In this document: piece by piece, positions 8,401 to 60,000 of the stretch
How the letters are laid out: each line of letters opens with the position of its first letter
How positions within the stretch are numbered: position 1 is the stretch's first letter
NCBI GenBank assembly: GCA_963556255.1
Contig: OY744607.1
Location: forward strand, 46,911,111-46,975,110
Reading direction: 5' to 3'
Length of the DNA stretch: 64,000 nt
Source of the DNA: Allolobophora icterica
Taxonomy: Eukaryota > Annelida > Clitellata > Crassiclitellata > Lumbricidae
Made by a program: the position numbers and the translations under genes
Notes under the pieces: model-generated
Database searches by the model: none
What the model was told of the DNA's origin: nothing
Seen by the model: the letters and a program-made list of their open reading frames with translations, nothing else

Positions 8401-11400
8401 TTAGGAGTAATGTACGATAAAATTAATCGCAAGAAGCGTGAAGTGTCAATACATGTGGTACAATCTCCGAATACTGATGACTCAGAGCATAGGTAGAGGA
8501 ACTTGACAGCAGTAGGGCTCGGTTGCTACTTGATCAAGGTTTTGCCACCAACAGGCTGGCCCGCTTGTTTGATCCTCGGAGGGTAATTAACTTGGGGTGG
8601 GGTGTTTCTGAGTGGAAAGATCTTGATAGTTGATAGCGATCCCACGGCCGGGAATGAGGTCTGAGAACGACAGGTGACCAGCGCAGCACCGCTGCGGGAG
8701 GAGGGCACATCAGCCTGCAGCACCTTGATATTAAAGCAGCCAGAGTCGGTCTGTAGTCTGTACTAGGGCCCATAACCGTCGTTGCTGCTTATCTGCCGTA
8801 ATTAGCGTCCGTTGCCCAAGCCTCAAGGAAGAATTATACAGTAGATAAAGTAATTTTAATCCAAAAATCCGAATTTTTTGTAATCCCGAAAATACGGGAT
8901 CCCACGTTTGTCAATCCCGGGATTACGGGATTGAAAAATGTTCCGGGATCCCGGGATTCGGGATCCCGGGATTACATTCCCTACTCCATACATAACAGTC
9001 TATCAATACCTTTGACTTTATTCTCCAGCAGTGTATCTAATTTGCGTTCCTTCTGCATGGCCTCTTCCGATACAGCCGGCGCTCCAGCAAAAGCAACGAT
9101 CACAATACTCATGTTGTCACGGCTGCCCTGAACACAAACATGCATACATACCATGTAACGTAACTCAAGTGTAATGTAAACAATACTTTAAAATAGCATC
9201 ACAGTAGGCACTGTAACATTTACTACACCGTTCTCACCGATTCACACCTACGATGCGCATATTTATTTGGAAGCCAGGCAAGATTTATATAGCACCGTTA
9301 AATGATTCTAAACGGAGCTATATAATGTTCAGATGCGCATGAATCTCTCACCAGAAGAAGGCAAGAGGGCATTATCAATTTTATCTGTAAACTAGCTGGA
9401 TTACCCGGCGTTGCCCGGGGTTATAAGTTTCAATCCCTGCACCCCCACCACCCCCACCCCCCACCACCCCACCACCACCCCCACCCACCACCACCCCTAC
9501 CACCACCCCCACCCCACCACCACCACTCCCACCCACCACCACCACCCCACTCCCACCCACCACCACCACCCCACCCACCACCCCCACCCCCCATCCCCAA
9601 CCCGCCCCGCACCACCCTCCACCCCCACCACCACCACCACCCGTGCACCCCCACCACCACCCCCCACTCCCACCCCACTCTGCACCCCCACCACCCCTAC
9701 CACCACCCCCCCCACCCACTACCCCCACCACCACCCCCCCCCCCCACCACCACCCCCCACCACCCCTACCACCACCCACCACCCCTACCACCACTCCCCA
9801 CCCACTACCCCCACCACCCACCCCCACCCCCCCCACCCCCAACCCGCCCCCACCACCCTCCACCCCCACCATCACCACCCCCACCACCACCCGTGCACCC
9901 CCACCACCACCACCCCCACTCACACCCCACCCCCCACCCCCCACCACCACCCCCCATCCCACCCCCCCAACCACCCCTACCACTACCCCCACCACCACCC
10001 CCCCACCACCACCCCCAACCACCCCTACCACCACCCTCCACCCCTACCACCACCCCCCACCCACTACCCCCACCACCCACCCCCACCCCCCCCACCCCCA
10101 ACCCGCCCCCACCACCCTCCACCCCCACCATCACCACCCCCACCACCACCCGTGCACCCCCACCACCACCACCCCCACTCACACCCCACCCCCCACCACC
10201 ACCCCCCATCCCACCCCCCCAACCACCCCTACCACCACCCCCCACCCCCACCCCCGCCCCCTCCACCCCCACCCCCCACCCCCACCCCGCCCCCTCCACC
10301 CCCACCCCCACCACCCCCACCACCACCCCCGCCCCCCACCGACCGCCCCCACCACCCGCCTCCCCACCCACGACCCCCACCCACCACCACCACCACCCCC
10401 CCACCACCACCACCCCCCACCACCACCCCCAAATTGACTTACCAACAATAAATTTATCTTCGATGTTTGTTACACGTGCATGCATCCAATGCAGTAATCC
10501 TAATGTCTCTGCAGGGACTGCATCCAATGCAGTAAGCCTAATGTCACTGGAAGGACGGTAATTTTCCTATCGCTTGGGGAGATGTTTTGACCGTTTTTCA
10601 CCATGGTAGCGGTGAAAGGGGGGTAAGCGAACCCCTCCACTGGGTGTCCGATGCCGAGGCCGACACAGCAGTGAAGGTTTGGAGTGAAAAGGTGCAAAAT
10701 TGTAGAAGTTAAGCCCGGTCAAACAGACAGACAGAGGGACACACACACAGAATTCTCGCTTTATTATATAGATGGGGTGTTGTTATAGGCTGCGCCCCTT
10801 CAAAATCTCATTTTCTCAAGCGGGGAGCACCTTGGTTTTTGCTCGCAAGGGTTGTTAAATAAAATATGCAGTGTACATTACATTACAACCGTACATTTCA
10901 CAGTTAAGACCATATATGTACGATGCACAGTGCGTAATTTGAGATTGACAATAAACTCAAATGACCTCCTGAGGCTTATTTAAGAGTAGAGTGAAAAACC
11001 TGCTTCTGATAAATGACAAAATGATCGGTCAAGCTATAAAACAATAAATGCATACGAACAACAATCACGATCATCAGCTCTATTTTCCAAAGTGCTACAT
11101 AGAATTGCAGTCTTGCGAATAGCAATAAATAGTGAATACCAAAATATTAAACAAGAATGCACAAAAGACACCTAAACAGCACAACACAAGTGTCAGCACT
11201 AAATTATATGAACAGTATTAATGTAATTTAAAGAGCTAACTTTTGTCAACAGCATGATTTCCACTTTAACTAGCTATTGAGAAATTTAGAATTCATGATT
11301 ACGATCGTTATCTGTCGACATTTAGTTTACGGCTACCTAAGTGACCACAGGCTCTTCAACTGACCTTGGATAAGCATGCATCCACAACGCAGTTACAGAT

Positions 11401-12207
11401 TTCATCAAGGTTGCTCGTCACAAGCATCCGGTTACGCACGAAATCGCACAACTCCTCGTTGGACATGACATCCCAGATTCCGTCGCAGGCCAGGATCAGG
11501 AACTCGTCCTTGTCCGACCGTTCCTCCATGAACACTTCTGGTTCAGGCGAGACGAGCTGCTCACATGGGCCCTTGCCGCTCACGTTTTTGTAATCGAAAT
11601 CGCCGAGCGCCCGTGACACCGCCAACGATCCGTTCACCCTCTGGATCATGACGCTGCCCCCGGCGTTCTGGATGCGCTCCTTCTCGATCGGATTATTCGG
11701 TTTGTGGTCGTATGTGGCACACGCCACACAACCTTCACGCGACAGCACACTGCGAGAGTCACCGCAGTTGGCGATGAAGACGTGTTGCGGCGAGACCATG
11801 GTGCATACGGCCGTCGAACCGCTCTTATCTTTTCCACTTGTGGTGTCCGGGAGGTCGCGGAGCTGGTCGTCCAGTTTGAGGAAACCAGTCTTGATGCCGC
11901 TGCGCACGCTCTCGAGCGTTGGCTCAGTCCTCAGCGGATCCTTCGAATCATAGAAATCCTCGTTGCTCAGAATCGCCTCTAGCAGACGTTTGGCACAATA
12001 AGCCGAAACTCCGGCGCCGGCGTGACCGTCGAAGACCGCAAAAAACGACCAGTCTTTCAATCCTTGCGGTAGACCGATCATGGCGCAGTGCGCATCCTCC
12101 ATTTCAACCCGCCAGCCCTGCATGCTGCTCAGCCCGTACCGGAGGCCATTGCCAGAGCCCACCTCTGTGTGCTTGTCTGTTTTCGGCTTGTCGAGAAATA
12201 CACCCAT
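5462..12207 (-). CDS. PPM1A: PP2C-family Ser/Thr protein phosphatase (PPM1A/PPM1B type)
   Basis: A metal-dependent PP2C phosphatase, assembled on the minus strand from exons 11365-12207, 9010-9127, 7373-7491 (corrected start 7481), 6048-6102 and a possible minimal terminal exon 5462-5467. Phases agree at every junction and give about 376 residues, close to PPM1A (about 382). The start ATG at 12205-12207 gives [10 protein letters not shown], with Gly2 suited to N-myristoylation as in the family. Metal and catalytic residues are visible: Arg33, Glu37-Asp38, Asp60-Gly61-His62, Asp242 in LACDGIWD and Asp285 in SRDNMS. The C-terminal helical region (LPPGGG, then RLNP) is present. The family dephosphorylates stress-MAPK, AMPK and SMAD targets; that role is inferred from homology. 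The last exon is uncertain: after the exon ending at 6048 the next acceptor at 5468 reads one Asp and then a stop. Introns carry a minisatellite, a hAT and a Helitron. Confidence 0.93.
6346..6412. repeat. Hairpin-forming inverted repeat in a phosphatase-gene flank or intron
   Basis: The arm AACACTTTAATGACGAGC (6346-6363) pairs with 6395-6412, 17 of 18 positions matching, around a 31-base loop. A single similar arm (GATCGTTAAAGTGTTAAA) occurs near 5240, so this may be a very short dispersed foldback element. Confidence 0.55.
6720..7255. repeat. Minisatellite of about 59 bp in a phosphatase intron
   Basis: Roughly nine tandem copies of a unit containing ACAGAGGCCAAGTTACCTTA, AACCAGAGTTGTGCTATTC and TATACACAAGTTAACCAAT. 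Copies differ by a few substitutions and small indels. It lies between the exons at 6048-6102 and 7373-7481. Confidence 0.85.
7568..7790. repeat. Dispersed repeat of the 'TTTATATAGCACC' type
   Basis: Contains TTTATATACAGCC, CAAGAAAACTCATC, AGTGCTCCCAACCTGAC and ACGGAACAGAGTGGTCTTCA. These phrases recur in order at 29345-29590 and 49030-49200. The ORFs it creates are shared between copies but do not resemble known proteins. Confidence 0.5.
7990..8167 (-). repeat. tRNA-headed SINE, family C, interrupted by a hAT
   Basis: On the minus strand, TAGTCTGGTAGTTAGAATGC is a good A-box region and GGTCGGGGTTCAAACCCC a good B box. A body follows that contains CGAGATTTCTGC and CACTGATC-type sequence. Copies occur at 53490-53640, 61600-61770 and 62160-62380. 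The hAT at 8176-8983 inserted just beyond it, duplicating CTCCATAC. Confidence 0.65.
8176..8983. mobile_element. Non-autonomous hAT element next to a phosphatase exon
   Basis: The TIR TAGGGAATGTAATCCCGG is matched by CCGGGATTACATTCCCTA at the other end. The 8-bp target duplication CTCCATAC lies at 8068-8075 plus 100 (8168-8175) and at 8984-8991. Both subterminal zones hold many copies of the palindromic phrase AATCCCGGGATTA. No transposase is recognised in the interior. The right end is only 26 bp from the phosphatase exon edge at 9010. Confidence 0.85.
9392..10772 (-). mobile_element. Non-autonomous Helitron carrying a C-rich satellite
   Basis: On the minus strand the element begins TCTATATAATAAAGCGAG at 10772. 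It ends in CTAG at 9392-9395, with a GC-rich hairpin (CCCGGGCAACGCCGGG, about 9403-9419) just before the CTAG. The flanks are A on the 5' side (10773) and T on the 3' side (9391). These are the Helitron hallmarks: 5'-TC, 3' hairpin plus CTRR, and A/T insertion without target duplication. No Rep-helicase coding is present. Most of the 1381-bp interior is the CCACCC-like array. It sits in the phosphatase intron between 9127 and 11365. Confidence 0.85.
9430..10432. repeat. C-rich CCACCC/CACCAC low-complexity array
   Basis: About 1 kb composed almost only of C, A and a few T on the plus strand, built from CCCCCACC, CACCACCAC and CACCCCTACC. A longer period is visible: a block around CCCGCCCCCACCACCCTCC, CATCACCACC and CCGTGCACCC recurs near 9845-9905 and 10105-10165. 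The minus strand is G-rich with many GGGG tracts. Long ORFs through it encode only Pro/His/Thr or Gly/Val/Trp and are not genes. Confidence 0.95.
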
Positions 12208-13025
12208 TGCTCTTCTCACGGTTTACGTTGCCAAGACAGATCTTGAAGCAATGAAATCAAAGCAAACTGGAAGAAAAATGAAAATATTATAGGATCGATC
12301 TTAAAAACCAGCAAACCACTAGGTAAATGTAAATCTCCAAAATTTCTCAGCGCCGCACAAAAGTCACGTCAGATACACCAGCTTATTCACCGACGCTACA
12401 TCAAATCATGTCAGGTCAGAATCATGGGGATCAAGATGAAGACAGCAGGTGCTATGGTGGAAATCGTTGGTGGTGGTCATTGGGTGGTGCAGGATAGCTT
12501 ACGAATTCAGGGTCCACTGTTAGCTTCCAGGTTAAAATCATGTAAGCCAAGTGATTCCTCATTTATACATACCTTCATAAAAAGAAATCAGTCCACTTCT
12601 AAAGCGATACAGATAGGTCTGCATGCCTTGTCCCATCAGTTGATGCCTTGTGCATTAGACACAGGTGCAATAGAAGTTATTAATTACATTTACAATCACT
12701 TCAATCCGACCTTTCAACTCGACCCATAAACTGCTATGTGACAAGCCCCAGTCCAAAATTAGCTTCACTATACACTGACTCAGGTTTCAATATCAGATGA
12801 ACTTCAGACAATTTTTAAAGTAATCAAGATAACAATGGTGCAAAAGTCAAGCTTGGGCCATCGGCAAACACTTCAGACAAGTTAAGGCACAGAACAGACT
12901 GCGCAAAGTACAAGGCTCTGCAAAGGCAGAGACATGGACATGACAGATGTTATCAAGCAGGGCACGGAATACAGCCAAAAACTATCAGAAGAACTTGCAT
13001 GCATGTACCTGGACACTTACTACAG
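12208..13025. other. Upstream flank of the phosphatase gene
   Basis: The first few hundred bases should hold the 5' UTR and promoter of the phosphatase (minus strand), but no TATA box or initiator can be assigned. The small plus ORF at 12424-12729 has no recognisable product. Part of it (about 12650-12690, ATTAGACACAGGTGCAATAG) also occurs near 5330 and is repetitive. Confidence 0.35.
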
Positions 13026-16077: not shown

Positions 16078-17271
16078 TAGGCTGACCAGACGTCCCGGTT
16101 TTCCCGGGACAGTCCCGGTTTTCTGCTAGCTGTCCCGGCTGCCGGGAAAGGTAGGCCAAACCCTAAAAATGTCCCGGTTTTTAAGAACTGACCTGACTTG
16201 TCAACGTCTCCTTGATTTTACTACTAGCATCTGGCGAGTAAATTCATTTTTAACTTCACTTTTATTTATTTATTACCATGCATAATACGGTAATACCTCT
16301 TCCGGTTCTAAACGTCATATTGTCGTGGTGATAATATCTGGCACTAAGATTACTAATTAGTAATCCCAGATAATATTCTGAGAGAACAGATTTTCATAAA
16401 TAATGATTTTTAATTTGAAATCATAATTCTAAAACTTGAAACTAAATTACTGAAATAAAGTTAGAAAATGTCAAAACGAAAATGTTCTTTTAACGACGAT
16501 CTGAAGGCCAAGTTTTCATTCTTGTCCAGCAGTGCGACTGATGGTAGTAGGCCTACTGCATTCTGCAGTATATGTAAGTCAACTATTTCGGTTGCTCACG
16601 GCGGCAGGTCTGACATCAATGACCACATTGCCATTTGTAAGCCAGTTGGGTATGGCATTGATGACAATGCACTGTTTGATGAAATGACATGCGTTTGTAA
16701 TTTTGTTACTCGAGAAAAAGTGGAACAATGGAATGAAAACAATGTTGCGGTGGATAGCAGATGGGTGCAGATTTTCAATGATCTGCAAGAAAGAGAGATA
16801 ATTCTTCCAAATTTGAAAATGATTCTACAATTCTTGTTAGCAATTCCTGGAACTAATGCTCCAGTTGAGCGAGTGTTCTCACTGATGAACTCTTATTGGT
16901 CAGATCAAAAAAGTCGATTATAAATCAGAAGAAACTCTTGAAGCTGTTATGATAGTGAAAGTGAATATATATGGAAGACACATGTGTTGAATTTTATGAC
17001 AGAATATTAGCAGACAAAAAGCTTTTAAGAAGCATACATTCAAGCACCAAATATGAGTGACTGATTTGATAAATTTAAAATTAAATTTTAAATTTAAAAA
17101 CATGATTTGCAATAAACCCTTTCAGTTATACCGATATATTATATATTGTATATTATTGTATAAGCATAAAATAGATATTTGTGCAAGTTATATTATAATT
17201 ATTGACAAAACACAAATTGATTTTGTGCTTGAAGTGTCCCGGTTTTTAGTTTCCAATATCTGGTCAGCCTA
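16078..17271 (+). mobile_element. hAT transposon with an internally deleted transposase
   Basis: The ends TAGGCTGACCAGA and TCTGGTCAGCCTA are perfect inverted repeats, and GTCCCGGTTTT phrases lie just inside both. The target duplication ATTTAGTT is exact at 16070-16077 and 17272-17279. The only ORF of note is at 16468-16923, which joins the N- and C-terminal parts of a hAT transposase. The element is therefore an internal-deletion derivative that would need transposase in trans. Confidence 0.9.
16468..16923 (+). CDS. Deleted hAT transposase: zinc finger fused to dimerisation tail
   Basis: A 151-residue ORF. Residues about 30-55 (FCSICK followed by a His about 20 residues later) look like a BED-type zinc-finger half. 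Residues about 115-151 contain LLAIPGTNAPVERVFSLMNS, the hallmark of the hAT C-terminal dimerisation domain. The RNase-H catalytic core with its DDE residues, normally several hundred residues between these parts, is absent. The reading frame is open across the junction from ATG to stop. It cannot transpose anything itself. In hAT and P families such truncated proteins can bind element ends and interfere with transposition, but a role here is only an inference. Confidence 0.75.
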   Translation: MSKRKCSFNDDLKAKFSFLSSSATDGSRPTAFCSICKSTISVAHGGRSDINDHIAICKPVGYGIDDNALFDEMTCVCNFVTREKVEQWNENNVAVDSRWVQIFNDLQEREIILPNLKMILQFLLAIPGTNAPVERVFSLMNSYWSDQKSRL

Positions 17272-18419: not shown

Positions 18420-18720
18420 AGCTGCTCTGCCTCTCCTGATCTGGTACCCTGGAAATCGGACTTTCCAGACCTCTTTTCCGGACCTCTTTTGGACTACTCT
18501 CTCTGGAAACCCCTTTGATCTGGTTTGGCCTCCTGGAAATCGGACTTGGACCTCTTTTGGACCACTCTCTGGAAACCCTCTGATCTGGTACCCTGGAAAT
18601 CGGACTTGGACCTCTTTTGGACTACTCTCTGGAAACCCCCTTTGATTTGGTTTGGCCTCCTGGAAATCGGACTTGGACCTCTATTTTATCACTCTCTGGA
18701 AACCCCTCTGATCTGACGTA
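18420..18720. repeat. Minisatellite of about 60 bp with dispersed flank
   Basis: Four to five copies of a unit containing CTGGAAATCGGACTTGGACC, TCTTTTGGACTACTCTCTGG and AAACCCC. The sequence after it (GTAGCGCTCGTGAATAGGAT, then GGTGCCCTGCGCTTGGC) recurs near 44400-44480 and 47590-47650, so the array grew at the edge of a dispersed repeat. Confidence 0.75.
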
Positions 18721-19782
18721 GCGCTCGTGAATAGGATGGTGCCCTGCGCTTGGCCTTTGAGTGGCGCTTTAGAAGTTTGGAGATAACGATTACGATGAGT
18801 AGACTCAAATTCGGTGGTCAGTACTAATCAGACATCATTGGTTAGTTGCACTCTAAGATCTTTGGTTGCAGCTTAACGACACTGTTTCATAACAAAGGGG
18901 AGTAGCGTCGCCCTCCTCGTTTCTCCATATTTGGGGCTGGCATTATCACAGGTAAGGCAGTAGCGGAGTTATGACTGATCTGTACCTCGCCGCCTTGTTT
19001 ATAAATACCTTGTGCTGAGAGTTAACCCTTACTTCACTTATTGCTATTGTACCTTTTCGCGCGCACTTATAGAGATCTCTGGGCCTAGATAAGGGGAATG
19101 TGACAAAAGTGGTGTTTAAATTTAGACGTGACTCAGCCTTAAATGATTAAAACTTAACTCCAAATCAATCTATATTGTTGCTTAGTTATATTTGTGGACA
19201 GATGACACTTTTGTGAGAACCAACCAAGTTGTATCGACAACATATCAACCCAGATCGGCCCTAGCAACCGTTACCCGTTGTCATGGTGCCTTGCAAATAC
19301 AAACGCGGAGGCATAGGCCTAATATGCGCGAATGCGTCTTGATAACAAACTAGTTAGAGCACAAAAGAAATAAATGCTTCAGGCGATTGAATCACGGTAA
19401 ATGGCCAAATCACTGGTCAGTTTCCCCTTTTTTTCAGATCTCACTCGCTTGCCCTCAATGGTTGTTTTGACCTGACCCAGAAACTAATCTGACACGCCTT
19501 GGAAGGTAAGCATCGAGTTTGAGAGACTTGGTGCAGCCTGCACCGCCTCAAAGAAGGGCAATCGCCAGTCTTGTAATGAAGCTAACCACGAGGGGCAGCA
19601 ACGATTATAATGGCCAGCCCTTTGCCCATAGACATCTTCTATTTACTTAGACTGCCTATTCTATGGTACAGAGTTGACTCGGTTTCCGGTTTCCGGCATC
19701 CGCCATACATCTGGCAGAAAGTTTCGTGTTCCTAGTACGACAAGGTTGTACATGATCGCCGCGACAAGTTGCAAAATTTACA
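18721..19782. other. Upstream flank of the THAP9-like gene
   Basis: No recognised gene. This should contain the promoter and 5' UTR of the THAP9-like gene or the left end of a P-type element. I could not identify a terminal inverted repeat. Confidence 0.3.
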
Positions 19783-22700
19783 ATGGTGGCATCCTGTTGT
19801 GCTTATAACTGCACTAATCGATACTCGAAGGATTCCGAGATCCGTTTTTATAGGTAAGGAATTTTTGTACAGTGGTACGATATCAAATTCACGTGTTTTG
19901 ATCGGCGTTTGGTCACATCGTTTTTCTGTTTATCGGTGGGCGCGTAGCAAATCAACGAATCCGCAAACGGGTATTACCGGCGGATCCCAGAAACTATTTC
20001 GTTTGTGTGTCTATCCCCGAAATAACGTGAACTTTTCCTAAAAATCATAAAGTTTTCGAACGCCAAAAACTAAACACATTTTCACAGCTATGTTTGACAT
20101 GTCAAAGTTGTATTTTAATGTTATAAATGCATGTAATTACATAAATTTTGCTAAATTTCCATGGTATACTGAATTATATTTGTAAGTTAAAACAATGTCA
20201 TTTGTACAAATCCTTTTAAGGGATACTTTTCATTAATTCAGAGAATTTATATAGAGCATCTCCAGGAGAACTACTCAGAGGTGCTCTCAGCCACCGATAA
20301 AGAAATGTAATTTGAGGGACTTACAAAAAAACAGGCAAGTGTAACCAAGGCAGCAATCGCAGGTCTAGAGGGAGGCCATTCTTGATGGAGGGACCGACAA
20401 TTGAAGAGGCCCAACACTGTATAAAAGCAGTTTGAGCACATGGAACTAAAGACTACCCCCTTCTCGAAGAGCGGAGAGTTCTATGGGTTGCACGGTTAGA
20501 CAGGTAGGATGGAGCAGGGTAGACCTCGAATCTGACACGATCAGGCCCTTAGCCAGCCACCTGTCATTGGGATGGGTGACAATTATTTTGGACGGTCATA
20601 AATTGTGCATGTTTCTCCTCCAGAACCATCCAGTTTTTGCTCTAGAGCCACTGCCAGCGTTCAGATGACCGTTCTGTAAGGAGCACGGGTTGATATTAGG
20701 CTCTGTAAACAGTTTGATGACCCTTGGTACAATAAATGGAGCATCAGTATTTATACATGGTATTATTTGATTGTTCTGCAGGTTTCCATTGAACAATACC
20801 GAACTAACGAAGAAGTGGCTGGTTGCAATTAGACGTCAAAAATGGCAGCCAAAACCAACAGACTTTATTTGCTCTGAACATTTCACATCTTCCTGTTTCC
20901 GAATATACAGCTCCCAAAAGAGACTTAAAGAGGATGCTGTTCCAGAGATATTCAGCTTTCCACAGCACTTGAAGAAGGAGGTACGAAAACGTCGTGTTCT
21001 TCAAAGGAACACTGTCTCACCAGCTGCGATGACAGTCTCGGATGTTGGTCCAGAACAGGCGGTCGCCAGATCTACTTCTTGTCTGTCCCATGATCATGTG
21101 CTTAGTTCAGGGTCTGTGACAGATCACAGCTATGCAATTACCTTAAGCCCTTGCAGCATCAAAAGGAAGTATGAGGATCTTCTGGAGAAGGAAAAGCTTC
21201 AAAGGAGTTTGATAGCTAAGAAGTTATCGGTCACTCGTCGCAAATTATTTCGTAAACAAACAAAGCTGCAAACTATGAAGGACGTAATAAAACAACTTCG
21301 GTCTAGAACTGATATCAATGCTGCATCTGTAGACCTGATTGAACGCTGTTTTGGGCAGATTCCATGTGAAATGTTGAAACGAAAACTATACTCTTCAGTT
21401 CAAGAACCATACAATGACACTTTGCGGTCTTTTGCCATGACTCTGCATTTTTACAGTGCAAAAGCTTATGAATTTGTTCGCCGCTCATTTTGCAAATGTC
21501 TACCACACCCTTCAACAATTCGGACATGGCACACTTCAGTGGATGGACGTCCGGGGTTTACAGCTGAAGCATTTGAGGTTTGTTGTTTCACTCTGAAAGT
21601 ATACTTGACATTCACTGTGAAAATTAATGCTGATGTGAAATTTGTACACTTGATAAATTGAATGAAGCGAGTAAGATTTATAGCAGTACCCGATCTGACT
21701 GCCAACCAGTTTTACTGCTGATGCGTGCCTCTTTCAGGCAGTAGCAGAGAACGAGAATAATGTACTCCGGCTCTTATTCCCAGATTGAGAATTGTAGAAA
21801 CAAGACGGGGAATTAGGCTTTGATCCATGTGAAGTTCAATATTTTATTCGTATTTTGCAAACTGACGTCAGCGAAATTTGAAAGCAGCAGATTTCAACGC
21901 TAGCAGTTTTGCAAGCCAAAGCGAAACTTGTTAACCGCGATTAAAACAACTTGTAAGCAAAATATTAAGTGAATGAAGTCGATAGCTTAGTGACTGGTTT
22001 CGACTTGAAGGCGTAGCGACGGATGGTGGTGGCGCTAGGGACTATCATAAAGTAGGCACATAAAACAATTTCTTTTAACCAGTTGGCATAAAGCAATTCT
22101 CAACATTATCAGTTGCCACAAAGTGATAAAATGAATAAGATTTAAAGTGGATTGATTAGATGGCAAGTGATTGCATTTAATTTTTAAAATGTTTGTTTTC
22201 TGTGTCTAGTGCCTTCGCCAACTGACTTCATCATCTCGTGATCCACTGCTCTGCAGCCTCATTTTTGACGAAATGTCGATTCGGAAGAACGTTCAGTGGA
22301 ATGGAAAAGAGAATGTTGGTTTTGTTGATTTGGGCACAGGAATTGACGATGACAGTATGCCTGTAGCTACTGAAGCTCTAATGTTTATTGTGGTGCCATT
22401 AAATGGTGCATGGAAACTTCCAGTAGCATACTTTCTTATAGATGGATTAGCAGCTGATGTGAAATCAAACCTTGTTCTTGAAGCCATTAACAGACTTTAT
22501 GCAGTTAATGTTCGAATCGTGGCTTTAGTTTGTGATGGACCCACTACTAATTTTGCTGTTGGTTCAAAACTAGGTGCATCATTAACAGTTGACAATATGA
22601 AGTCATTTTTTATTCATCCTGCAAATTGCTCTTGGAAAGTGCATATTATTTTTGATGCTGCACATATGTTGAAATTGATGCGTAATATATTGGCTGAGAA

Positions 22701-24048
22701 AGGGATTTTAACTGATGAAAATAACAAGCAAATTAGATGGCAACATATAAAGGATCTATATGAGCTTCAGGATAGAGAAGGTTTGAAAGCAGCCAACAAA
22801 CTGAAAAGGAGCCACGTTGAGTGGTATCAACAGAAAATGAAGGTTAGTCTGGCTGCACAGTGTATGAGCAGGTCAGTGGCAAATGCGCTTGAATTCCTAC
22901 GGGAAGATCTAAACTTGCCTCGGTTTGCTGATGTTGCACCAACTGTGGCCTTCATTAGAGTGATAGACAGACTTTTTGATATTCTGAATTCAAAGAGTAA
23001 GTTTGAAAAAGAATTTAAGTCTGTATTAAGGTGTGACAATGAGCAGTTTTGGCGACCTTTTCTGATGCAGACAACTGTTTATTTGTCCAATCTAAAACTG
23101 TTTGGTCTCCCACTACATCAAACCATGAGGAAGACAGCAGTGCTTGGTTTCATAGTAACAATAAACAGTGTTATTGCCTTGTTTGACGAATTTGTGTCAA
23201 CGCGTGTTTTACCTTATTTGGCCACGTATCGCCTGAGTCAAGATCACATTGAGCTACTGTTCAATGTTGTTCGCTCTCGTGGGCGATGGAACAACAATCC
23301 CTCAGCAGAACAGTTTCGAACAGCATATAGGCAGTTGCTAATGAAACATAATATCAAACCCAAGAATACGGGTAATGTGGTTTCTCAGGAGGAAACTGTT
23401 ATCTTGCCATCTGTTGGACTTGTTGAGAAACATGAGACCTCTGTGACAACTGCTGAGATTTTGAAACGTTTTAGTCTTGGCCATAGTGATAGTAGCACTG
23501 ATCATGATTACGCTTTAACTCCAGATCGGATTCATGTTTCTGAGTTTACTGCAAACATTGTCACCTATATGGCTGGATATGTTTCTCGCAAACTTTGTAA
23601 AACAATTACTTGTGTAGGGTGCAAATTATCATTAATTAGTAGCTCTAAAGTTGTGGAAAACTGCAAACTGATTCAACGCAAAGATGCAGGTGGTTTGTTG
23701 TATCCCAGTCAATCTGTTGTTAATGTATGCACTATTACTGAACGTTGTATTCGTTTTGTGTGTGGAAGAGCAGCTGATTCAGTTCCCAGGCAACGGAACT
23801 TGCGTCTTGCCTTGCAGGTTGCAGTTTTGGAAAGAATACAACTTTCTAACTTGTTCTTGGAAGCAGCAGATGACCATTCATGTGTACTGGATGTGTTTGA
23901 AAGCCACACTTTAAATCTTGTGCGTTTAATTATCAATCAGTATGTGAACATTAGATTTTATTCAGTGGGAAAAATCTTTTCAGATAAATTAAGAGGAAAA
24001 AATATCAGATTCAACAGCAATAAGAAAGTGTTATTTGCTCACCAATAA
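19783..24048 (+). CDS. THAP9: THAP9-like / P-element-type transposase, intact three-exon gene
   Basis: Exons 19783-19853, 20782-21577 and 22210-24048 join in phase (2/1, then 0/0) with GT-AG borders to give 901 residues without a stop; human THAP9 is about 900. The start MVASCCAYNC opens a THAP zinc finger: C5 or C6 and C10, then Cys and His in the phrase FICSEH. A coiled-coil-like basic stretch follows (KRKYEDLLEKEKLQRS). Exon 3 begins the RNase-H-like P-element core: PLLCSLIFDEMSIRK with Asp309, VCDGPTTN with Asp398 and FDAAHMLKLMRN with Asp438, which are conserved in this family. Drosophila P and human THAP9 use such a core to cut and paste P elements with GTP. Whether this copy is a mobile element or a host gene cannot be decided, since no terminal inverted repeats were found. 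Introns are 928 and 632 bp. Confidence 0.92.
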
Positions 24049-24145
24049 GAATGTTTTATTTGCTCACTATTACAATGTTATTCTTTCTTGCATGTTCATT
24101 CAGTGATATGAGATTACATGAACATTACATTACTTGCCATAGAGT

Positions 24146-24600
24146 TTAGACTTTATTGAAACTGTTTTTAGTGTACAGCCTACGCAGGCGAATTACCTGT
24201 ACCCAATACATAATGTAAAAATTTTAAAGATTGTAAATATTACTTTTGTGTGTTCAATACAGAATTTTGCTGCCTGTATATTTCACATGTAAATAGTCTT
24301 GTACATGTAAACCTTTTAGACTTTATTTAAACTACAGCTTACGCAGGTGAATTACCTGTACACAATACATAATCTAAAAATATTAATGATTTTAAATGTT
24401 AATTTTGTGTGTTCAATACAGAATTTGGCTGCCTGTATATTTCACGTGTAAATAGTCTTGCACATGTAAACCTTTTAGACTTTATTTAAACTGTTCTTGG
24501 TGTATAGCAGGTGAATTACCTGCACACAATATATCACTTAAAAATGTTAATGATTGTAAATATTAATTTTGTCTGTTCAATATAACCGCAGAATGACCTG
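24146..24600 (+). repeat. Three tandem copies of about 170 bp after the THAP9-like stop
   Basis: Units start TTTAGACTTTATT near 24145, 24315 and 24475. Each runs through GGTGAATTACCTG, CACAATACATAAT, TTGTGTGTTCAATACAGAAT and CTGCCTGTATATTTCAC. The third unit is shortened. They lie in the probable 3' UTR. Confidence 0.8.
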
Positions 24601-24631
24601 TGCCACACAGGCTAACCTGGACTTGCATACA

Positions 24632-24637
24632 AATAAA
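24632..24637 (+). promoter_or_regulatory. Candidate poly(A) signal of the THAP9-like gene
   Basis: An AATAAA hexamer occurs about 590 bp after the stop codon, after the tandem repeats and before a LINE remnant of opposite orientation. Assignment rests on position only. Confidence 0.4.
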
Positions 24638-24729
24638 TATTGAAAAACTCCTAGTTTTGAGTTGTAGTGCTATATCAATTGCAGCACACGTATACAAGTA
24701 ATGTTTAAATCAAAATGTGGTATAATAAT

Positions 24730-25035
24730 AATAATAAGACGATTTATATAGCGCCGTAGCACAGCCGAGGCCGAAGAAAGGGCGCTGTACATGAGTTACA
24801 AAAGTCATTGGCAGTCGTATGAAAGTTTAAAAAGATGTCTTCAGCTGTGATTTGAATGACTCCAGCGATGGTGCATTCTTAACGTGGTCAGGAAGATTTT
24901 TCCACCCAGTGGGTCCCATGACAGCGAAGGAACAGTCGCCAAATCTCGTAGAAGACCGCAGTACTTGTAATTGATTTTTTTTGACGATTCGTAGCCGACA
25001 TCTGTTCTGGTTATCTGCCACAGTCCACACGAATG
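24730..25035 (-). pseudogene. LINE 3'-end remnant
   Basis: The minus strand encodes SSTRFGDCSFAVMGPTGWKN and LPDHVKNAPSLESFKSQLKT, the standard C-terminus of CR1/jockey-like reverse transcriptase ORFs. It is followed by the tail phrase GCGCTATATAAATCG. It is 5'-truncated, as most LINE copies are. Degenerate relatives are at 32280-32420 and 56150-56260. Confidence 0.8.
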
Positions 25036-25091
25036 CAGAAATCAGAGATGTAATCTGGCATGAGATGATGCAGTGCTTTATACGTGATCAG

Positions 25092-25244
25092 CACTGGCGT
25101 AAACTTGTCCAAAATATTGGGGGAGGGGTTTGGTCACCTTTTCTACACTTATTCCATTGGATGTACAGTCCATCTCAATTATTGGGGGGCAAGTGCCCCG
25201 GCTGCCCCTCTCCCCCACCTCACCCCCCAGAGTCTACGCCTATG
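25092..25244. mobile_element. 153-bp hAT MITE
   Basis: It begins CACTGGCGTAAACTTG and ends GTCTACGCCTATG, imperfect inverted repeats. The octamer GTGATCAG is exact on both sides (25084-25091 and 25245-25252). The middle has GGGGGGCAAGTGCCCC. Confidence 0.8.
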
Positions 25245-25898
25245 GTGATCAGGCACAGTTTGTACGTAATCCGCTGAGGAACACGGTATGTTGGCAAAAA
25301 CCATATATTCTGCTTTTCAGTAAAGTATCGGGTTCTGCATCAACTCTGGAACATGTGCATTTTTAGCACGTTTTCTTTCAACGATTTTATTGTGTTCCGA
25401 CGATGAACAATGCACTGCCATTTTGGACCTTAGCCTCCTCACTACTAGGCCCATCTATGACTAGGCCTATGAACTCAATGGATCGTCGTATGCAGCAGCT
25501 GGTAATTACCAAACAATTGCGTCTGCTAATTAACTTGGTAAAATTTATATATGAACAGTAGACCTGCTTATTAAAGCTTAAAATTTCACATATTTGCAGT
25601 AAGATGCTGCTAAATGAGCTCACGCTAGTAACGTACATCGCACGGGAAAGCGAACGAGTCGGCAGCGTTCTGCCAACTATTTACCCACAATTCCAAGAGC
25701 GCCACTGCGTCAATTTTAGCTCGGCTGCGCCGAGGCGTTCATTGGTCTAAGTAATAATAGATGTCTATGGTCAGTGTACTGATTTTACAGCCGTGCTCGC
25801 TAGGTGGCGCAGAACTCTCGCAATATTAGACAAACTGACAGACAGACAGGCGGAAGTTAGAGTTGGATGAACCAATGAATTATGAATGCAAAGATGCT

Positions 25899-26040
25899 TA
25901 TAGCCATAGGCTCTGGGGGGGGGGGGCAGCTGGGCACGTGCCCCCCAATAATTGAGATGGACTGTACACCCAATACAACAAGTGTAGAATAAATAACCAA
26001 ATGCCCCACCCCCAATATTTTGGACAAGTTTACGCCAGTG
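25899..26040. mobile_element. Second copy of the 25092 hAT MITE, inverted
   Basis: Read on the minus strand it repeats CACTGGCGTAAACTTGTCC, TTGGGGGTGGGGC and GTACAGTCCATCTCAATTAT, and ends near GAGCCTATGG. The flanks AAGATGCT (25891-25898) and AAGGTGCT (26041-26048) match 7 of 8. Six extra bases lie at one end, so the boundary is less sure than for the first copy. Confidence 0.65.
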
Positions 26041-54057: not shown

Positions 54058-57000
54058 ATGGCTGCGTTTTACGAGAAGACGACGCTGAACGCCAAGGTTT
54101 CGCTGTTTCTTCTCGTCGTTCTTGGCGTCTTCTTGATCGTGTCCTATGCCTCACCCTACTGGACGACGATACCCGATGGAAATGCCGGACTGTGGATCGC
54201 CTGCAATGGACCTGAATGCTACGAACGATGGAATCAATGGATAATCGGTTAGAACCGATTTAGTTGTAGGCCTAGTCTTAATATTATTGTCTGTTGCCGA
54301 CTGCAGTCTATATTTGCGCCTGGCTGTCCCTTCTGCCGTTCATTCATTCATTATCCATCCAATCCATCCATCCATCCGTCCGTCCGTCCGTCCGTCCATC
54401 CGTCCGTCTAGTCCATCCATCCATCCATCCATCCATCCATCCATCCATCCATCCTATGTTGATTCAAAGGCACGTTTGTGTGAATTGTCGACGTATACAC
54501 CGCATAGCTTAATTATAGTTGAGCTTTGTCTAACCTCGGAAATCATTATCTGTGATGCTAGTGCCACCTTAGTTGTTAGAAGATACTCAACCGATGGACA
54601 TTGACAGAATCGCAAATCGCTTACAATATATAATAATAGTAATAATAATAATAAATTAATAATAATAATTATTATTATTATTATTATTATTAGTTGTAGT
54701 AGTAGTTGTTGTTGTTGTTGTATCTGTTATACATTTGACAGGCGCCACTATTCGACGACCAAGTATCAATCGATTGCGTTGAGCAATAGTGAGTGAAGGA
54801 CTTGCTCAAGGTCCCTACACAGCAACCCTCATAGAGGGGAAGGCTAGAACTCGTACTCTCAGTACTACAAGTTGCACATCGCTTTTTCACAACATTTTTG
54901 TAAGTGGACATACAGTAATTATGGAAAGTTTGTTTACAAATCCTCAGAAGTGCTATGTATTGACCTACACTTAAAAGCTGCAATGTAAATTGAATTGAAT
55001 TTAAATTTGTTTATTGTTATTACTATTATCCAGTAGCAGAATAATAATAATAGTAATAAATAATAATAATAATAATAATAATACTTACATACATACATAC
55101 ATGCATACATACTAATAATAATCATCATCATCACCTGGTATATGTACCTTTATTTTATTATTTTTTGTGATATATTGCCTGGTGTTATTATTGTTATTTT
55201 ATTATTATTCTATATTATTATTATTAGTAGTAGTAGGCCTAGTATTATTACTGTAAGAATATGAAGCACCAGTTAATAAAAGCAAAGTGCACCTCAGAAG
55301 CTCTAAAATTGTCTCCACACTGTCTTACACAGCGATAGTGATTGATCTCACCAGCAATGGTGATTTATATCACACAAACAATTCATTGAAAACCCGCAGG
55401 GTCGAAGCCATACGGTTGCTATAGAAAAACGTATACATTTATAATTTCACAAATATTGCTGATGCAGGATGGGTAAGAGCGGTCCAGGTGATGCTGTCGA
55501 TATCTCTGATTTGCTGGACCTTCGCGACGTTCTGCCTCTGTCTCTACCTGTTCTTCACCCGATTCCAGGATGACAGAAGACTCATCTTCGTCTCCTGCGC
55601 TACGATCTTCACCTGTGGTACGTGTCTGATCAAGATAAGTAAGTAAGTAAATAGTCTATTAGTGAGACAAGCGCCCACACTTTACAACAACAATGCACAC
55701 AATTGTGAAAAAAGTATCACAATATCAGTAGGAAAAAAACTGATGCAATAATATAATAAGAGTTTTAAAAGTTTAAATATACACACGCCGCCACTGCAAG
55801 TTGGATACCGAAGCAGTCATGAAAACTAACGTTATCACAATTTTTTTTATTTGTATAACTAGTGAGCAAATGATGAAGGATTTTTTATGCAACATGCAGT
55901 GTTTGAAAGTATAGTAATTCAAACTTGAATTTATGGAATTGCTTAGAAGGCAGTAATTGCTAAAAGACAGCCTTGGGGTGACTGGATGTGCTTAAAGAAC
56001 TTCAGTTTAGTTTTCTCCCAAATCTTCCCCAGTGACAAAGATCACACACTGATTGAAGGCATTAACTGAGGACATTATTGATTCATGGCATTGTTGATTG
56101 AAGGCATATATTTATTGAAGCATCACTGATTGAAGGCATCATCGATTGTCGCCATATCCATTGCGTGGAACAGTCTTTCTGACTACGTGAAGAAGCGCCA
56201 ATCTCTGGAGACATTTAAATCACAGCTCAGACCTATCTTTCTAAACTTTCAAATAAATGTCACTGATTTTTTCAGTGCTTCTTTCTAGAAAAAAGGTTCC
56301 GGAACTGAACAATAGGTTCCGGAACTGAACAATTATGGAAGGGATAAAATCCGAGAAAAAACTGAATATACTGAACTGAATTTGGGATTGGAAGGGGTCT
56401 CAATAACACTGAAAACAGTTCACAACACCTTGTCACCTTGTCACCTTGTGCTGTCAGCTCGTGGAGCTCTAGCGACCGTCCTGGTGAACACACTCCACCA
56501 TCTCCTATTCGATGACAAGTCTCTCAATTCCGCCAAATTCATGCCAGTTACATCTTGTATCTCATCCATCCATCTCCTCCTTGGGCGACCCAGTCTTCTC
56601 CTCCCCTCACCGCACGCCAGCATCATTTCCTTCTCCAGACCATCAGATCGCATAACATGTCCAAAGAACCTTAGCTTCATTCTTGTCGCAGTTTGTTTTA
56701 ACGACTCTTCATTCTCAACTCCAATCTCCTCTCGTATTGATTCGTTCGTTCTTTTCTCAGTCCAAGATATTCTCAGCATCTTCCTCCATATCCACATTTC
56801 ACAAGCGTTAACCTTATTTTCCATGTTCTTTGTCATTGTCCACGTCTCGCAACCGTACAGTACCGTAGGAAAGATTAGTGCTCTCACGAGCCTTTTTTTG
56901 GTTTCTATGCTCACATGTTTGTCTTTCCATATCTTTTCCAGTCCGGTCATTGCAGCTTTCCCTATAGCAATCCTTCGTTTTATTTCTGGATCACACTTTC

Positions 57001-60000
57001 CCTCCTTTCCAACCAGTGATCCTAGGAATGTGAAGCTTTCTACCACCTCTATTTCCTCTCCGTCTATCTCAAAACTATCCCAATCTGCTGTTGTCATGAC
57101 CTTTGTCTTCTTTATGTTGAAGTATAAACCAGCTTTTTCACTTTCTCTCCTGACCCTTCTTATCAGTTCTGCCAAATCCTCTTTTCTTTTTGCCATTAAT
57201 GTTGTGTCATCCGCGTATCTAAGGTTATTCAGTGTCTTTCCAGCAATTTTTACTCCCTCAATTGCCCCCTCCAGTTCTGCCTTTCTCATTATTCTTTCAG
57301 CATATAGATTAAACAGGAATGGAGACAAGATGCATCCCTGCCTCACTCCTTTCTTGATTCTGAAATTGTCAGTGTCTCCGTATTCTGTTCTTATCACCGC
57401 TATCTGGTCTTCATATAAACCCTTTAGTAACATTATCAGGTGTTTCGGAATTCCCATTTCAAGCAGGGTTTTCCACATTAAATCATGGTTAATGCAGTCG
57501 AATGCCTTGCTATAGTCAATGAAACAGATGTGAACCTCCTGTCCATACTCCCTTTGTCTCTCCATTATCCACCTCATGTTGGCTATATGGTCTCGAGTTC
57601 CACGAGATTTCCTAAACCCTGCCTGGTTCACCGGAAGTTCTCTTTCAATTGTGCCTTCCATTCTTTTGTGAATTATTTTCAGAGCAAGACGGAGAGTCAA
57701 GGGCCCCTCGATCTAATGAAGCAACAGGACTAAAGCCGAAAGGACGTCTAGAGGTGGATCGATTCGGAGGGGAAAGACTCAACCTGAGCTGTAAGCAGAA
57801 GATGAAGTTGGGCACATGGAACGTGCGAAGTATGCAGAGCGGAAAGATGGACGTGATACAGGGAGAGATGAAGAAATTAGACATAGCAATCCTAGGATTA
57901 AGTGAGACAAGGTGGAAGGGACAAGGACATTTCAGTTGGAATGGATACAGGATAATAATGTCAGGACAAAAAGAGAGAGGAAAAAATGGAGTTGCAATCA
58001 TGTGTGACAAGTCAAGCGCAAATGCGATAATGGGATATGATACAGTGAGTGATAGAATTTTGAGTGTAAGATTCAGAGGAAGAAAGGTCAACATAACCAT
58101 TATACAGGTATATGCTCCAACATCGATATCGTTAGAAGAGGAACACGAGGGTTTTTACACCAGCCTGCAAAGTACAGTGGACAGAACTCCGAAGGGCGAC
58201 GTACTAGTGATCATAGGTGACTTCAATGCGAAGGTGGGTCAATGCACCGGAGGCGATGGAGACACATTAGGTAGTCATGGCCTGGGTGAACAGAATGAAG
58301 CAGGAGAAAGACTTGTTGAGTTTTGCAAAGGGAATGGCTTAGGAATTATGAACACTTGGTTCGAACAGCCTAAGAGAAGACTGTACACATGGACGTCACC
58401 GAATGGGAAGCATAGAAACCAGATTGACTACATACTGATAAACAAAAGATGGAAAAGCACAATAAGAGATGTGAGAACAAGGCCAGGAGCGGACTGTGGA
58501 ACTGACCATGAGCTATTGGTAGCAACACTGAGAACGAAATTGAAAAAGATAAAGAAAGGAGATCGATTGATCAGATACGACTGCAAGGGTATCACACTGG
58601 AATACAGGATGGAAATAAAGAATCGGTTTGAAGTACTAGAGAGAGATGAGATAGAAGAGGAAGAGGATTCGAACAACCTATGGGAGAGGATGAAGAAAAC
58701 AATAGTCGAAGTCGCAGATAAGCACATTCCAAAGAAGAAGAAAATCACAACAACGACATGGCTATCGAGAGAAGCCATATGCATGGCGGTTGATAGGAAG
58801 GCTGCAAAGAAGGCAGGAGAAAAGGATAAGGTAAGGGCACTGAACAGTGCCTTCCAAAAACAAGCACGGAAAGATAAAGAAATACATCTAAACGAATTAT
58901 GCAGAGAAATGGAAGACGAGGGAAGGAAGGGACGAACCAAGGAAATGTTCTCAAAAGTAAAGACAATCACGGGAAAATTTGCACCTAGAATGGGCTCAAT
59001 GAAGGCAGGAGATGGAAATGTAATCTGCGATGAAGAAGGGATAAAGCATAGATGGAGAGAATACACGGAGGAGTTGTATAGGGAAGACAAACGAGTCAAA
59101 AAAGAACAAATTGACGTAACAGAGTATGAAAAGGAACCGGAGGTCATGGAAGCGGAGGTAGAATGGGCAATCAGACAACTCAAGGACAATAAGGCACCCG
59201 GTCAAGATGGGATACCTATAGAACTGATAAAAGCAGGGGATGATGCGATGATAAAAACAATAACAAAATTGTGCAATCAAATATGGGCAACTGGAGAATG
59301 GCCGGAGGACTGGAAGAAGTCGATCTTTATACCTATATTCAAGAAAGGAGATGCGAGGGAGTGTGAAAATTATAGGACGATAGCAATGATATCACACAAT
59401 GTTCACAACACTGAAATTAAATTAAAATAACTAAATTATTGTTTTTATTATTAAAATAAATAAATAATTTTTAGTAGTTGAAAAAAGGTGCCAGAACGCC
59501 GTTCCGGCTGAAAAACCACTGGATTTTTTAAACTCGTGTACAACGCCCTATTCTTTGGTCTCGGCTTAGCTACTGTAACAGCACTATTATAACTTAATTA
59601 TCTTATTATCATTATTATTGTTGTTATTCTTGTTACTATGATTATTATTACTACTATTAATATTATCATTTATTATTACTACTACTACTATTATTGCTAT
59701 TATTATTACTATTATTATTATTACTATAATTATTATTGTATTATTATTGTATTATTATTATTATTATTATTGTTATTATATTATTACTAAATTTATTACA
59801 ATTATTATTTATCATTCTATTGCAGGTGTTTTCACACTGCTCTGTGTTTTTACGTGGGCCGCTGGGCAGCATTATGGGAGTGATGAGATCCTCAACTGGG
59901 CGTATGTGATGGCTTGCTTTGTCGCCATCCTCTCCTTCGTCACATTCGTCTTTCTACTAAAAGAACTTCAACAGACCAACTACGCGAGTCGCTACCAGAA

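What the first reader, a model, noticed from the sequence alone, without database searches (positions are those of the whole stretch)
19783..24048. Full-length, uninterrupted THAP9/P-element transposase
Three exons join in phase to 901 residues with a complete THAP finger and the P-type RNase-H core acidic residues. Intact P-type transposases are uncommon outside a few lineages. No terminal inverted repeats were spotted, so it could be either a recently active P element or a domesticated host gene. The three tandem 170-bp units after the stop could be 3' UTR or a subterminal element feature.
Basis: partly seen in the sequence, partly recalled or inferred. Interest (0 to 1): 0.75.

Follow-up and report, generated by a model that had tools for sequence, protein, structure and literature searches.

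The report
Recently mobile autonomous P-element transposon
This is a complete P-element (a cut-and-paste transposon best known from fruit flies) with an intact transposase gene, inverted-repeat ends and many near-identical copies in the same animal genome, so it is a recently jumping parasite of a known kind and not a host gene.

Summary
The transposase is real: three exons (19783-19853, 20782-21577, 22210-24048, +) give 901 residues with THAP, HTH, split RNase H, GTP-binding insertion and THAP9_C domains. The three Drosophila P catalytic positions are kept (D309, D398, E637). The host genome (1.12 Gb, unnamed) holds 15 full-length copies of exon 3 at 99-100% identity, window included; five share the top score. 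Aligned copies set the element at 19627-25769 (6,143 bp), with imperfect 26/25-bp terminal inverted repeats starting CATAGACATCT. Of 16 copies, 13 have 8-bp target-site duplications and 10 keep the 901-residue frame. Eight young copies differ from the window copy by 3-9 bases over about 6.1 kb. Purifying selection shows between subfamilies, not among young copies. Against a simple picture, the window copy has both ends but no target-site duplication; unexplained. The '170-bp units' are a 159-164-bp repeat inside the element. It is a new family of the P superfamily, probably in a lophotrochozoan. Present-day activity is not shown.

The parts
19627..25769 (+). Complete P-superfamily element, 6,143 bp
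   Evidence: Homology with other genomic copies starts and stops here; ends read base by base
19627..19652 (+). Left terminal inverted repeat, CATAGACATCTTCTATTTACTTAGAC
   Evidence: 23 matches in 26 columns against the right end, two mismatches and one gap
25745..25769 (-). Right terminal inverted repeat, read inward CATAGACATCTATTATTACTTAGAC
19783..19853 (+). Exon 1 (71 nt): start codon and first part of the THAP finger
20782..21577 (+). Exon 2: rest of THAP finger, linker, HTH domain
22210..24048 (+). Exon 3: split RNase H with GTP-binding insertion, THAP9_C domain, stop
22267..22269 (+). Codon of D309, place of Drosophila P D230
   Evidence: D in 19 of 23 aligned rows, the others G, K, Y and a gap
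22534..22536 (+). Codon of D398, place of Drosophila P D303
   Evidence: 23 of 23 rows
23251..23253 (+). Codon of E637, place of Drosophila P E531
   Evidence: 23 of 23 rows
21578..22209 (+). Intron 2, donor GTTTGT weak by eye; if kept, the product is 316 residues without the catalytic domain
   Evidence: a repressor role is inference only
24156..24582 (+). Tandem repeat, period 159-164 bp, about 2.5 copies, probably 3' UTR
   Evidence: AATAAA at 24632
24740..25083 (-). Probable tail of a non-LTR retrotransposon reverse transcriptase carried inside the element
   Evidence: Translation, motif recalled; no Pfam match
25092..25244 (.). Nested miniature element, 153 bp, with 8-bp duplication GTGATCAG at 25084-25091 and 25245-25252
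   Evidence: a related copy in inverse orientation lies outside the element, about 25891-26040

Best explanation
An autonomous transposon of the P superfamily that multiplied recently in this genome by cut-and-paste transposition. Shown from sequence: intact transposase gene, inverted ends, many near-identical copies at different places, most with their own 8-bp duplication. Inferred from the Drosophila system: the transcript is spliced at two introns; the protein binds element DNA through its THAP finger, pairs the ends with the help of GTP, cuts with the D309/D398/E637 RNase H site, and joins the element to target DNA with cuts 8 bp apart. Inferred only: mRNA keeping intron 2 could give a THAP-HTH repressor.
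For: 15 full-length exon-3 copies at 99-100% identity including the window, five with the top score. 8-bp duplications in 13 of 16 copies, each chance match 1.5e-5. Inverted ends shared by copies. Intact frame in 10 of 16. All P transposase domains, the three catalytic positions, and fold match to the Drosophila P strand-transfer complex. Purifying selection between subfamilies, 14 synonymous to 4 nonsynonymous, none among young copies, 3 to 11. One internally deleted copy (L023) keeps both ends and its duplication.
Against: The window copy has both ends but unmatched flanks CCTTTGCC and GTCAGTGT. No RNA, no insertion polymorphism and no activity data. The inverted repeats are imperfect, and no subterminal inverted repeat above chance was found. 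An 11-bp inverted match somewhere in 1.2 kb is itself common in shuffles (68 of 300 reached 11 or more); the weight lies in its exact position at the ends, not its length. No target-site palindrome was found (p=0.23).
Confidence: 0.9

Rival explanations
1. A domesticated host gene of the THAP9 type, kept for a cellular function.
For: Intact 901-residue frame; full THAP9 domain set including THAP9_C; purifying selection between subfamilies.
Against: Many near-identical copies, inverted ends and duplications; young copies show no constraint.
Confidence: 0.01
2. A recent burst that is now over: the transposase excises but no longer integrates, as reported for zebrafish THAP9, or all copies are silenced.
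For: Zebrafish THAP9 excises but did not transpose in the cited assays (PMC10983969, abstract and passages). Several copies are already broken: L016, L019, L020, L021, L022, L023.
Against: Seven copies have intact frame and regular ends, and distances among the youngest (L009-L012) are 1-3 bases in 6.1 kb, so any loss would be very recent.
Confidence: 0.3
3. For the window copy alone: it is a rearranged insertion, through recombination between two copies, a flanking deletion or an aberrant transposition joining ends of different copies, which removed the matching duplication.
For: Both ends intact but flanks differ. The right flank GTCAGTGT starts with G like 8 of 10 tabulated duplications, so the left flank may be the one replaced.
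Against: No reciprocal flank among the loci fetched by then; the genome-wide flank search was never made. Two mutated 8-mers cannot be excluded, though only the first and fifth bases would be unlike chance.
Confidence: 0.7

Closest known systems
Drosophila melanogaster P element and its transposase (PDB 6p5a, 6pe2)
   Same: THAP, HTH, split RNase H with GTP-binding insertion, DDE positions; fold; 8-bp duplications; internally deleted copies
   Different: 6.1 kb against 2.9 kb; imperfect 26/25-bp ends against perfect 31-bp ends (Drosophila values from PMC7776569, passages); no subterminal inverted repeats found; carries nested repeats. Transposase identity over the Foldseek alignment 24%
Zebrafish Pdre2 / THAP9
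   Same: Transposase with THAP9_C domain, inverted ends and 8-bp duplications (PMC10983969, first part of the text and passages)
   Different: Zebrafish ends are 13 bp with 12-bp subterminal repeats and one full-length gene is described; here about ten intact copies. In the tree the window groups apart from two fish THAP9-like rows; the zebrafish protein itself was not compared
Human THAP9
   Same: Same domain set, from Pfam model names
   Different: Human gene lacks inverted ends and multiple internally deleted copies (PMC7776569, passages); the human protein itself was not compared
Unnamed proteins P0001-P0010
   Same: 57-93% identity; one clade with the window, 11 rows, support 100/100
   Different: P0001 is a 512-aa fragment at 93%; the hosts, ends and copy numbers of all ten are unknown

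Membership tests
P superfamily DNA transposon | Transposase with THAP finger, HTH, RNase H split by a GTP-binding insertion | tested here: met
   Six Pfam models above cut-off; best PDB sequence and fold matches are Drosophila P transposase
P superfamily DNA transposon | Three catalytic acidic residues | tested here: met
   D309, D398, E637
P superfamily DNA transposon | Terminal inverted repeats | tested here: met
   19627-19652 and 25745-25769, shared by copies
P superfamily DNA transposon | 8-bp target-site duplication | tested here: met
   13 of 16 copies; not in the window copy; one copy lacks its right end; one has a partly masked flank whose four readable bases agree
P superfamily DNA transposon | Internal THAP binding sites and subterminal inverted repeats | tested here: inconclusive
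   No subterminal inverted repeat above shuffled sequence; binding sites were not looked for
P superfamily DNA transposon | Transposition activity | not testable with these tools
   Needs an excision and integration assay
Domesticated THAP9 host gene | Single copy without transposon ends | tested here: not met
   15 full-length copies and inverted ends
Domesticated THAP9 host gene | Conserved synteny across species | not tested
   No related eukaryote genomes in the tools

The most novel reading that the evidence does not exclude
A P element still jumping today in a lophotrochozoan animal, able to excise and integrate by itself, with a built-in brake in which retention of intron 2 yields a THAP-HTH repressor, evolved separately from the splice switch of Drosophila.
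Probability: 0.2. Interest if true: 0.65.

Novelty: new member of a known kind. Interest (0 to 1): 0.42.

Why it matters
Most mechanistic knowledge of P transposition comes from one fly element. The zebrafish transposase of PMC10983969 excises but did not integrate. A family with ten intact reading frames and seven structurally regular copies, nearly identical to each other, in what is probably a lophotrochozoan, is a good candidate for a naturally working P transposase outside insects. It would allow direct comparison of end recognition, GTP use and splicing control.

Tried and rejected
Domesticated-gene reading: rejected on copies, ends and duplications.

Palindromic target preference: in ten tabulated duplications 13 of 40 self-complementary pairs against 10.5 expected, p=0.23; over 14 bp 17 of 70 against 18.4, p=0.70. 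G as first base in 8 of 10 is only a hint. These ten are the copies with both flanks directly readable; L017, L019 and L022 were not included.

Subterminal inverted repeats: none above shuffled sequence.

Relatives in viral or prokaryote collections: 47 and 62 pattern matches, none confirmed by tblastn; the tool says records of the window's own genome may be left out.

Host name: a neighbouring PPM1B-type phosphatase exon matches unnamed proteins at 94% and 86%. Among the 120 listed of 6,311 hits, rows naming an organism are molluscs, Lingula and a leech at 69-74%, and one fish at 62%. So probably a lophotrochozoan; not named further. A search for mitochondrial COX1 did not complete.

Missing duplication of the window copy: no reciprocal flank in the loci fetched by then. 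Genome-wide counts of internally deleted or miniature derivatives were planned with the element's two ends and never answered.

Literature: six searches listed no paper that I recognised as describing this element; with the host unnamed and the library partial this says little.

Full report
Observation. The three exons join in phase to 901 residues. Pfam finds THAP (5-81), P-element HTH (196-273), RNase H N part (280-411), GTP-binding insertion (440-560), RNase H C part (629-663) and THAP9_C (728-875), all above cut-off. The PDB sequence search gives four matches: Drosophila P transposase (E=7.6e-26) and three THAP1/THAP2 finger entries. D309, D398 and E637 stand at the places of D230, D303 and E531; that these are the catalytic residues is from PMC7776569 (passages). 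In an alignment of 23 rows the second and third are invariant and the first is D in 19. AlphaFold2 on exon 3 with 22 relatives gave mean pLDDT 79.7. Foldseek ranks the Drosophila P strand-transfer complex first (E=5.9e-18 and 7.5e-18, TM by target 0.68 and 0.70).

Gene model. Splice sites are GT..AG; the donor of intron 2 (GTTTGT) looks weak. P0002, a predicted protein of 683 aa, runs through the exon 2/3 junction in the same phase. If intron 1 is kept the frame stops at once; if intron 2 is kept a 316-residue protein results. That this could be a repressor is inference. Exon 1 of 71 nt resembles, from memory only, the first coding exon of human THAP1; no call tested this.

Copies. Exon 3 searched in the window's own genome (1,117,693,669 bases, 328 contigs) gave 41 matches. 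Fifteen cover all 1,839 bases at 99-100% identity, window included. Five of these share the top score, and one further match covers bases 1-838 at 98%. The tool calls such counts lower bounds. I fetched 17 places: the 14 other full-length ones, the deleted one (L023) and two diverged relics (L024, L025). Counts below are over 16 copies: the window and L009-L023. L024 and L025 were left out as relics (78% and 90% over part of exon 3).

Boundaries. In most copies homology starts at 19626-19628 and stops at 25769-25771. The ends read CATAGACATCT...AGATGTCTATG, giving 19627-25769. They align over 26 columns with 23 matches. This pair had appeared as I7.

Target-site duplications. Thirteen of 16 copies have an 8-bp duplication. 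Ten are read directly (L009, L010, L011, L013, L014, L015, L016, L020, L021, L023). L017 has a 4-base insertion beside its left end. L019 and L022 were read after fetching their far ends. One copy has a masked left flank whose four readable bases agree. L018 lacks its right end. The window copy has both ends but different flanks, CCTTTGCC and GTCAGTGT. A chance 8-bp identity has probability 1.5e-5.

Integrity. Ten of 16 copies keep the 901-residue frame: window, L009-L015, L017 and L018. L016 has a nonsense codon at 229. L020 and L021 have a 2-base length change and stop after residue 707. L019 and L022 are interrupted in exon 2. L023 has lost about 0.9 kb within exon 3. Of the ten, L018 lacks its right end, L013 has an altered right subterminal part, and L017 has the 4-base insertion. 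Seven (window, L009-L012, L014, L015) have intact frame and regular ends; L015 has one tandem unit fewer.

Age and selection. L009-L012 and L014-L017 differ from the window copy by 3-9 substitutions; L013 by 23, many probably in its altered part. Distances among L009-L012 are 1-3. At an assumed 2-5e-9 changes per base and year this is of the order of 0.1-0.3 million years or less (the rate is assumed). L018 differs in the coding part by 14 synonymous and 4 nonsynonymous codons (ratio about 0.11, p=2e-5 against neutrality under an assumed transition bias). The young copies L009-L017 together show 3 synonymous and 11 nonsynonymous changes, one of them a stop, and no sign of constraint (p=0.41). 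The contrast has Fisher p=0.0036. L020 and L021 give 14:10 and 14:12. L019, L022 and L023 were not counted, being partial. This fits a lineage of working elements with short-lived copies.

Kinship. The protein search listed the best 120 of 179 hits and scored only the 7,995 candidates sharing most words. P0001 is 93% identical over 57% of the query; P0002-P0010 are 57-66%. Rows naming an organism (Nymphon, two fishes, Ixodes, Rotaria, Ephemera) are 36-43% identical. A tree of 30 rows groups the window with P0001 (100/100) and these with P0002-P0010 (100/100), apart from the two fish rows; it is midpoint-rooted and some rows are long. No relatives were confirmed in the viral or prokaryote collections.

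Other contents. The tandem repeat 24156-24582 lies before the only AATAAA between stop and element end (24632). A probable LINE tail in antisense (24740-25083; motif recalled, no Pfam match) is followed by a 153-bp miniature element with duplication GTGATCAG. The alignments of the young copies run through both, so they were aboard before the burst. In L019 and L022 about 75 bp of the miniature element is missing.

Verdict. A new family of the P superfamily, recently mobile, autonomous by anatomy. Ordinary in kind, but it can be tested directly. Open: the window copy's missing duplication, the host's identity, RNA support and present-day activity. Papers: PMC10983969 seen as the first of seven parts and passages; PMC7776569 as passages; PMC1562414 as abstract and outline; PMC10027918 and PMC13228809 as passages; others only as search listings.

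Noticed in passing
window 19619-19626 and 25770-25777: The window's own copy has both ends but no target-site duplication, unlike 13 of 16 copies.
   Followed up: partly
window 25092-25244 and about 25891-26040: Two related miniature elements, one nested inside the P element with an 8-bp duplication and one in inverse orientation just outside it, with near-duplication AAGATGCT/AAGGTGCT by eye.
   Followed up: partly
window 56441-59430: A LINE whose endonuclease (+, 57616-59427) and reverse transcriptase (-, 56444-57712) lie on opposite strands, as in a 5'-inverted (twin-primed) insertion.
   Followed up: partly
window 16465-16923: Short ORF with a finger-like N-terminus (by eye) joined to a hAT dimerisation tail, the latter just below Pfam cut-off: looks like an internally deleted hAT transposase.
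   Followed up: partly
L023: Copy with about 0.9 kb of exon 3 deleted but ends and duplication kept; the aligned pieces overlap by about 4 bases at the junction, as in internally deleted Drosophila P copies.
   Followed up: partly
window 18480-18715: Tandem repeat of about 60/127 bp left of the element; a similar stretch (about 84% over 196 bp) lies left of the unrelated insertion in L015.
   Followed up: no
window 11356-12222 (-): Host exon of a PPM1B-type phosphatase; nearest named relatives are lophotrochozoans.
   Followed up: yes
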